Positions 19,801-20,437 of a stretch of DNA of 64,000 nucleotides are shown in pieces. The translations under genes were made by a program, and so were the position numbers. The stretch lies in IMG/VR virus record IMGVR_UViG_3300044675_001825, positions 1-64,000 of that record. The stretch is one strand, 5' to 3'. Numbering within the stretch: position 1 is the stretch's first letter; each line of letters starts with the position of its first letter. The notes under the pieces are model-generated. The model did no database searches and was not told the origin of the DNA. It saw nothing but the letters and a program-made list of their open reading frames with translations. This DNA comes from a virus.

Positions 19801-19835
19801 TAAAAAATCCCTACACACTTGAGACATGTGTAGGG
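19801..19835 (-). terminator. Intrinsic terminator of the tmRNA transcript
   Basis: A perfect 9-bp stem (19809-19817 with 19827-19835) is followed on the minus strand by ATTTTTTAATTT. It lies 41 bases after the tmRNA 3' end. Confidence 0.85.
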
Positions 19836-19875
19836 AAATGGTAAAAGTTATGTACAATGCAAAAGACATAACTAG

Positions 19876-20242
19876 TGGAGATGCTGAGACTCGAACTCAG
19901 GTCTTTAATACTCAAATAGTTACAATTTTATACAGCTTATATTCCTACACTTATTTAAAGAGTCTGCAGGAGATACTCTGGGGCCAACAGTTATGTTAGC
20001 GAAACCACCATCTTGTTTAATCTAACAAGAAAATCTTTGAATGTTTAGGCTGCTACAACAAGATCAATATCCTCAGTTAATAATGAGAACACTTTGTTCA
20101 TGTTAGCTTCGATTTGTGCGTTGTCTCCTTGAGATACTACACGAGAATTGTTTTTGCCATTTATTATATTCACCTTAGTTTACAGTTATCTCTCTGGCTG
20201 AATTGTAACCCATGCTTATTAAATCAATTCCATGTCATCCCC
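19876..20242 (-). ncRNA. ssrA: Transfer-messenger RNA (tmRNA)
   Basis: The tmRNA rescues stalled ribosomes and tags their products for proteolysis. The acceptor stem pairs GGGGATG (5', 20236-20242) with CATCTCC (19877-19883) and has G-U as third pair, the alanine-charging identity. The T arm is CTGAG/CTCAG around TTCGAGT. Helix 2 pairs 20201-20209 with 19919-19927 (9 bp) and 20217-20223 with 19904-19910 (7 bp). A 7-bp hairpin resembling helix 5 (TCTTGTT/AACAAGA) follows the tag stop. The 5' region matches the tmRNA pattern GGGG..GA..TGGA...GA. The mature length is 367 bases and the CCA end is not encoded. Promoter and terminator are both visible. Pseudoknots were not fully resolved. No SmpB gene is seen, so host SmpB would be used. 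Confidence 0.88.
20045..20158 (-). other. Predicted tmRNA tag reading frame, 37 codons
   Basis: From a probable resume codon GGC (20156-20158) the frame stays open for 37 codons to TAA (20045-20047). It begins GKNN, close to the GENN start of Bacteroidota tags, and ends LVVAA, close to the usual ALAA end read by ClpXP. Ordinary tags are about 8-15 residues, so this is very long. The resume codon is inferred; a short alternative (ATG-frame AKTILV then TAG) lacks a degradation end and is less likely. Confidence 0.65.
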
Positions 20243-20394
20243 AAATGTCCCTCGTGTGAGGGCACAGTTCAATTAGTTGTGTTGACCAATGATCAACTTT
20301 TAAAAATGTATAATATAGGTAAGTTCAGTGATACGCAGCACATACATTGACTATTTAAACTACTTTGTGGCGATTATAGTCCCCAGTGATTATA

Positions 20395-20425
20395 CAAAAT
20401 CCCTGCAAATATACTTCACAGGGAT
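20395..20425 (-). terminator. Intrinsic terminator of the VWA gene
   Basis: A 7-bp stem (atccctg 20399-20405, cagggat 20419-20425) is followed by TTTTG on the minus strand, 17 bases after the VWA stop. Its loop holds the -7 box of the tmRNA promoter. Confidence 0.65.
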
Positions 20426-20437
20426 TAATAAAACAAA
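20406..20437 (-). promoter_or_regulatory. Bacteroidota-type promoter of the tmRNA gene
   Basis: TTTG (20434-20437), 20 bp, TATATTTG (20406-20413): a full match to the primary sigma-factor consensus of Bacteroidota. The expected start is near 20400, giving a 5' leader of about 160 bases that holds two small hairpins (20281-20297 and 20249-20262) before the mature tmRNA end at 20242, to be removed by host RNase P. Confidence 0.7.

What the first reader, a model, noticed from the sequence alone, without database searches (positions are those of the whole stretch)
19876..20242. Phage-encoded tmRNA in a crAss-like genome
Seen directly: acceptor stem GGGGATG/CATCTCC with G-U at pair 3, T arm with TTCGAGT loop, two-part helix 2 (9 and 7 bp), a helix-5-like hairpin, own promoter and own terminator. 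tmRNA genes are known in only a small share of phages, mostly large ones. A phage copy could keep ribosomes recycling while host mRNA is degraded, or replace the host tag. No tRNA gene was noticed in the window, so the tmRNA is not part of a tRNA array.
Basis: partly seen in the sequence, partly recalled or inferred. Interest (0 to 1): 0.85.

Follow-up and report, generated by a model that had tools for sequence, protein, structure and literature searches.

The report
Phage tmRNA with an unusually long tag
This virus of Bacteroidota-type bacteria carries its own copy of the ribosome-rescue RNA (tmRNA), and instead of the host's 9-residue tag it encodes a conserved tag of about 37 residues, seen in many related phages and in none of the host genomes checked.

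Summary
The tmRNA is real. ARAGORN and Rfam RF00023 (63.2 bits, E=2.6e-22) both place it at about 19873-20242, minus strand. The acceptor stem, helix 2, T arm and a hairpin after the stop show compensatory changes across relatives. Read from the resume codon that aligns with host tmRNAs (GGC, gene position 85), the window encodes GKNNSRVVSQGDNAQIEANMNKVFSLLTEDIDLVVAA*, 37 residues; ARAGORN reports only the last nine. In 93 distinct phage tag sequences, 92 keep the A-N-M core and 86 end in x-A-A. In 86 of 86 complete genes the tag frame is open and both other frames are closed. Invariant residues use varied synonymous codons. Tags run 24-49 residues (median 35), against 8-10 in 27 of 28 host tmRNAs drawn without regard to tag. 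The tag profile matches none of 119 host-class genomes. Isolated phages carry it (phi14:2, phi38:1, Calle_1, FpV4), so it can be tested. Most likely it rescues ribosomes with host SmpB and adds a long tag: a classical C-terminal degron plus a selected helical module of unknown partner. Nothing here shows expression, tagging or degradation. This is a new variant of a known kind.

The parts
19873..20242 (-). tmRNA (ssrA) gene, about 367 nt plus 3' flank
   Evidence: ARAGORN; Rfam RF00023 63.2 bits
20236..20242 (-). acceptor stem, 5' strand GGGGATG
   Evidence: compensatory pairs in relatives
19877..19883 (-). acceptor stem, 3' strand CATCTCC, then discriminator A at 19876; CCA not encoded
19884..19900 (-). 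T arm CTGAG-TTCGAGT-CTCAG
   Evidence: covariation in relatives
20169..20196 (-). phage-specific conserved PK1-region block CAGAGAGATAACTGTAAACTAAGGTGAA
20048..20158 (-). tag reading frame from resume codon GGC: GKNNSRVVSQGDNAQIEANMNKVFSLLTEDIDLVVAA (37 aa)
   Evidence: frame; conservation
20045..20047 (-). tag stop codon TAA
20099..20116 (-). invariant tag core QIEANM
   Evidence: ANM in 92 of 93 distinct tag sequences; Q, A, N and M are invariant columns in A1
20012..20029 (-). hairpin after the stop, CTTGTT-AGATTA-AACAAG
   Evidence: compensatory changes in relatives
19943..19979 (-). putative H-type pseudoknot AGAGTATCTCCTGCAGACTCTTTAAATAAGTGTAGGA
   Evidence: read by eye; not tested separately
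19919..19938 (-). 3' side of helix 2, AAGCTGTATAAAATTGTAAC
19808..19836 (-). intrinsic terminator
20406..20437 (-). candidate Bacteroidota-type promoter TTTG-N20-TATATTTG, 163 nt upstream
   Evidence: enriched upstream of related tmRNAs, and 12-14 nt from the 5' end in L066, L115 and L133

Best explanation
A working phage tmRNA of Bacteroidota origin. Shown by sequence: intact tRNA-like domain, helix 2, PK1 region, a resume codon in the same context as host tmRNAs, and a conserved tag frame of 24-49 codons (37 here). Inferred: it is charged with alanine, binds host SmpB (no SmpB match in the phage) and rescues ribosomes stalled during infection, adding Ala plus the long tag. Inferred: the C-terminal x-A-A is still a degron of the ClpXP-type ssrA class. 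The added amphipathic helix (Q-x-x-A-N-M-x-x-V-x-x-[LI]-[LI]) is selected as peptide and probably binds a protein (adaptor, protease or chaperone), changing how fast or by whom tagged proteins are handled.
For: tmRNA identity. Stem covariation. Resume codon at gene position 84-91 in 85 phage genes against 94-100 in 106 host genes, in the same sequence context. Tag open in 86 of 86 genes, the two other frames closed in all 86. Q, A, N and M invariant, with varied synonymous codons for Q, A and N; pN/pS 0.47 in frame against 0.92 and 1.24 in shifted frames. The relatives were sampled by a PK1 pattern or by a neighbouring protein, not by the tag. 86 of 93 tags end in x-A-A. The tag occurs once per phage genome, in the tmRNA, and in none of 119 host-class genomes. 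Host tags are 8-10 aa in 27 of 28. AlphaFold gives a helix over residues 11-37, mean pLDDT 74.9. No SmpB in 12 phage records, while the control rings in 10 bacteria. [quoted passage not shown]
Against: No expression, tagging or degradation data for any of these phages. The tag partner is unknown: no Pfam match and no significant PHROGs match. pN/pS is not corrected for shared ancestry. The chance of 37 open codons at this composition is about 6% for one gene, so the case rests on the family. A few tags end in MVA, LVA or VGV rather than x-A-A. One tmRNA (L065) has a 50-aa tag without the ANM core.
Confidence: 0.72

Rival explanations
1. The true tag is short, as ARAGORN reports (EDIDLVVAA); the upstream open frame is a passenger.
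For: ARAGORN output. Its length would be typical.
Against: ARAGORN's predicted start differs among relatives and in the window lies 84 nt downstream of the host-aligned resume codon. The residues it leaves out are the most conserved part.
Confidence: 0.05
2. The extension is a structural or length device: about 35 residues would fill the ribosomal exit tunnel, so the stalled chain is fully pushed out, with no specific partner.
For: Median length 35, near the tunnel length (general knowledge); helical prediction.
Against: Specific invariant residues (Q, A, N, M, V) would not be needed for length alone; lengths vary from 24 to 49.
Confidence: 0.15
3. The conserved ATG is an internal start and the RNA also makes a small protein (MNKVFSLLTEDIDLVVAA).
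For: The ATG is invariant in all 73 distinct core sequences compared.
Against: Q and A-N upstream of it are equally invariant, and the frame is open back to the resume codon in 86 of 86.
Confidence: 0.05
4. A decoy that titrates SmpB and blocks host trans-translation, like the tRNA-like-domain-only tmRNA of phage DS6A.
For: Such inhibition by a DS6A-like RNA has been reported (PMC4131195, PMC11915505).
Against: A decoy would not need a conserved tag frame, stop codon and x-A-A end.
Confidence: 0.06

Closest known systems
Bacteroidota host tmRNA (ssrA, tag GENNYALAA)
   Same: Resume context TTTTAAAYGG, glycine resume codon, tRNA-like domain, C-terminal x-A-A
   Different: Host tag 8-10 aa against 24-49; host segment after the stop about 268 nt against 125-280; PK1 block phage-specific
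Mycobacteriophage Bxz1-type tmRNA (ET08)
   Same: Phage-borne tmRNA with a long tag: 25 aa, ATDTDATVTDAEIEAFFAEEAAALV
   Different: Different sequence, ends ALV, and lies within a tRNA array; no ANM core
Mesoplasma florum ssrA tag read by Lon (PMC10873288)
   Same: An ssrA tag tied to a protease other than ClpXP
   Different: Host gene in a mollicute; sequences not compared here
Cellulophaga phage Calle_1 tmRNA (PMC8776804)
   Same: Same lineage: PK1 block and ANM core, tag NGNNTNAVNAQIEANMEAVNAILNLEVAVGV
   Different: Ends VGV; the gene is annotated, but its tag is not mentioned in the paper text searched

Membership tests
tmRNA (RF00023) | Full-length covariance match above the gathering score | tested here: met
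   63.2 bits against 47, positions 1-374 of 374
tmRNA (RF00023) | tRNA-like domain: 7-bp acceptor stem and T arm | tested here: met
   covariation in relatives
tmRNA (RF00023) | Helix 2 joining the domains | tested here: met
   compensatory changes in relatives
tmRNA (RF00023) | Resume codon and tag frame ending in a stop | tested here: met
tmRNA (RF00023) | Four pseudoknots | tested here: inconclusive
   The segment after the stop is mostly shorter than in hosts; pseudoknots were seen by eye only
tmRNA (RF00023) | Alanine charging, SmpB binding and tagging activity | not testable with these tools
   needs experiments
Degradative ssrA tag (ClpXP type) | C-terminal hydrophobic-Ala-Ala | tested here: met
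   window ends VVAA; 86 of 93 tags end x-A-A
Degradative ssrA tag (ClpXP type) | Length 8-35 aa as reviewed (PMC8012679) | tested here: not met
   window tag 37 aa; family 24-49, median 35. Length is descriptive rather than defining
Crassvirales (host genome of the tmRNA) | TerL and capsid close to crAss-like phages | tested here: inconclusive
   TerL about 27% to crAss-like phages; capsid matches only FpV4-type phages and Lbo-JY46

The most novel reading that the evidence does not exclude
The phage tmRNA runs its own tagging code: the ANM helix sends proteins from stalled ribosomes to a new partner, or protects them, so that infection redirects bacterial ribosome quality control rather than only supplementing it.
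Probability: 0.3. Interest if true: 0.82.

Novelty: new variant of a known kind. Interest (0 to 1): 0.62.

Why it matters
Why phages carry tmRNA is an open question. A phage tag that is about four times longer than the host's, selected at the amino-acid level and shared by at least four phage groups, suggests that the tag itself is the point and gives a concrete motif to test. Isolated phages with cultured hosts carry it. It also shows that a standard gene finder truncates such tags, so they may be overlooked elsewhere.

Tried and rejected
Search for a protein source of the tag: no Pfam match, no significant PHROGs match, and no second copy in the 14 phage records that have it. SmpB and ClpP in 12 phage records: none. 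RNA constraint as the cause of tag conservation: rejected because invariant residues use varied synonymous codons and the other frames are closed. Protein-mode search of the phage collection with a composite tag found only phi14:2. The closest TerL relatives, Lbo-JY46 and phi17:2, have no tmRNA above the cut-off and no tag. The first host control was selected by its tag and so is circular for tag length; an unselected one was run.

Full report
Observation. The window carries one tmRNA gene on the minus strand, found by ARAGORN (19875-20242) and by Rfam RF00023 over the full model (19873-20242, 63.2 bits, gathering score 47, E=2.6e-22; again the only hit in a permissive scan). There is no tRNA in the window. 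A single-sequence fold is not more stable than shuffles (z=-0.92), so the case rests on the covariance model and on relatives. In an alignment of 26 compact relatives, 23 of 70 predicted pairs have compensatory changes, most of them in the acceptor stem, helix 2, the T arm and a hairpin after the stop. The terminator is at 19836-19808. No sigma-70-type promoter was found on that strand; a Bacteroidota-type element TTTG-N20-TATATTTG lies at 20437-20406, and the same element is enriched upstream of related tmRNAs (13 of 79 against 0.8 by shuffling), sitting 12-14 nt from the 5' end in three of them.

The tag. ARAGORN reports EDIDLVVAA, but its predicted start varies from gene to gene. Aligning phage and host genes by the resume context (TTTTAAAYGG) puts the resume codon at position 84-91 in 85 phage genes and 94-100 in 106 host genes. 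From there the window reads GKNNSRVVSQGDNAQIEANMNKVFSLLTEDIDLVVAA and stops at TAA. Relatives were collected either by a neighbouring protein or by a DNA pattern in the PK1 region, never by the tag itself. In 93 distinct tag sequences the frame starts GGC, GGA or GAC and ends TAA or TAG; 86 end x-A-A, five MVA, one LVA and one VGV. In 86 complete genes the tag frame is open in all and both other frames are closed in all. One tag, L065, lacks the ANM core.

Selection on the peptide. In 73 distinct core sequences Q, A, N and M are invariant and V occurs in 72, while their codons vary wherever the code allows (A: GCT, GCA, GCC, GCG; N: AAC, AAT; V: GTA, GTT, GTG); the two following hydrophobic positions are almost always Leu or Ile, with many codons. 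pN/pS is 0.47 in frame and 0.92 and 1.24 in the shifted frames; these values are not corrected for shared ancestry. Around the invariant core, N-terminal and C-terminal parts combine in different ways, which suggests mosaic exchange. AlphaFold gives a helix over residues 11-37 with mean pLDDT 74.9 (numbering starts at the N before the resume codon).

Hosts. In an unselected sample of the class of Aquimarina, 54 of 60 genomes have a tmRNA, and 27 of the 28 tags that ARAGORN called in the best 30 are 8-10 aa, mostly GENNYALAA-like. The tag profile matches none of 119 genomes of that class. The PK1 pattern matches nothing in the genome-contig collection. So the long tag is confined to phages in the sets searched. 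The longer tag usually goes with a shorter segment after the stop: 125-280 nt against about 268.

Which phages. Isolates with this tmRNA are Cellulophaga phi14:2 (Steigviridae), phi38:1, phi40:1 and Calle_1-3 (Pervagoviridae) and the Flavobacterium psychrophilum phages of the FpV4 type (Fipvunavirus). With the window's own group that makes at least four. The window's TerL is closest to Leptolyngbya phage Lbo-JY46 (40%), then Cellulophaga phi17:2 (33%) and crAss-like phages (about 27%); the first two have no tmRNA above the cut-off. 'crAss-like' is therefore only loosely right. No SmpB or ClpP was found in 12 phage records, so the RNA would have to use host SmpB.

Mechanism. Shown: the parts of a working tmRNA and a selected long tag. 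Inferred: it rescues ribosomes stalled during infection with host SmpB and alanyl-tRNA synthetase, adding Ala plus about 35 residues; the x-A-A end keeps an ssrA-type degron; the helix is a binding site for something. [quoted passage not shown]

What is known. Phage tmRNAs are known; a 2021 phage set had them in 402 of 18,146 genomes (PMC9004378). Tags are reviewed as 8-35 aa (PMC8012679), with 10 aa the commonest (PMC11915505). A long phage tag has a precedent in the Bxz1 group (25 aa in ET08). Calle_1's tmRNA is annotated but its tag is not discussed in the paper text searched (PMC8776804). I found no report of the ANM tag family in the open papers searched. The 2025 tmRNA database covers RefSeq viruses and may list single examples; I could not check it. 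Hence: new variant of a known kind.

Limits. No expression or activity data. Many relatives share ancestry. Pseudoknots in the segment after the stop were read by eye.

Noticed in passing
L010:6797-7021, L009:7053-7311, L011:7072-7296, L014:7334-7557: Group I introns (RF00028) inside or next to the tmRNA gene of related phages; in L009, L010 and L014 the exon breaks off in the T loop. The 3' exon was not located.
   Followed up: partly
L008:6380-6660; L033:4740-5060 (opposite strand): A second conserved, structured-looking RNA upstream of the tmRNA (GTTCTCAGC...CCCTACTCTT...AAGAAAGAGGGTGCT), shared with phi14:2, without an Rfam match.
   Followed up: no
L004:5503-5603, L011:6440-6546, L009:6593-6701: Unusually long tRNA matches by Rfam (101-109 nt) near the tmRNA in relatives, not called by ARAGORN.
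   Followed up: no
L065:2427-2793: A tmRNA of this lineage whose 50-aa tag lacks the ANM core (NGNIDNDAQEVVDINYTFSTPMMVVHKGERKSVSPSQDLSWGTRQVAIAA).
   Followed up: no
L273:2960-3400 (Flavobacterium phage FpV4): tmRNA neither annotated in the record nor found by ARAGORN; in phi14:2 the gene overlaps annotated hypothetical CDSs.
   Followed up: partly
window 20248-20261: CCCTCACACGAGGG hairpin just before the tmRNA 5' end; a similar CTCACATGAGG motif occurs upstream in 14 of 85 relatives, function unknown.
   Followed up: partly
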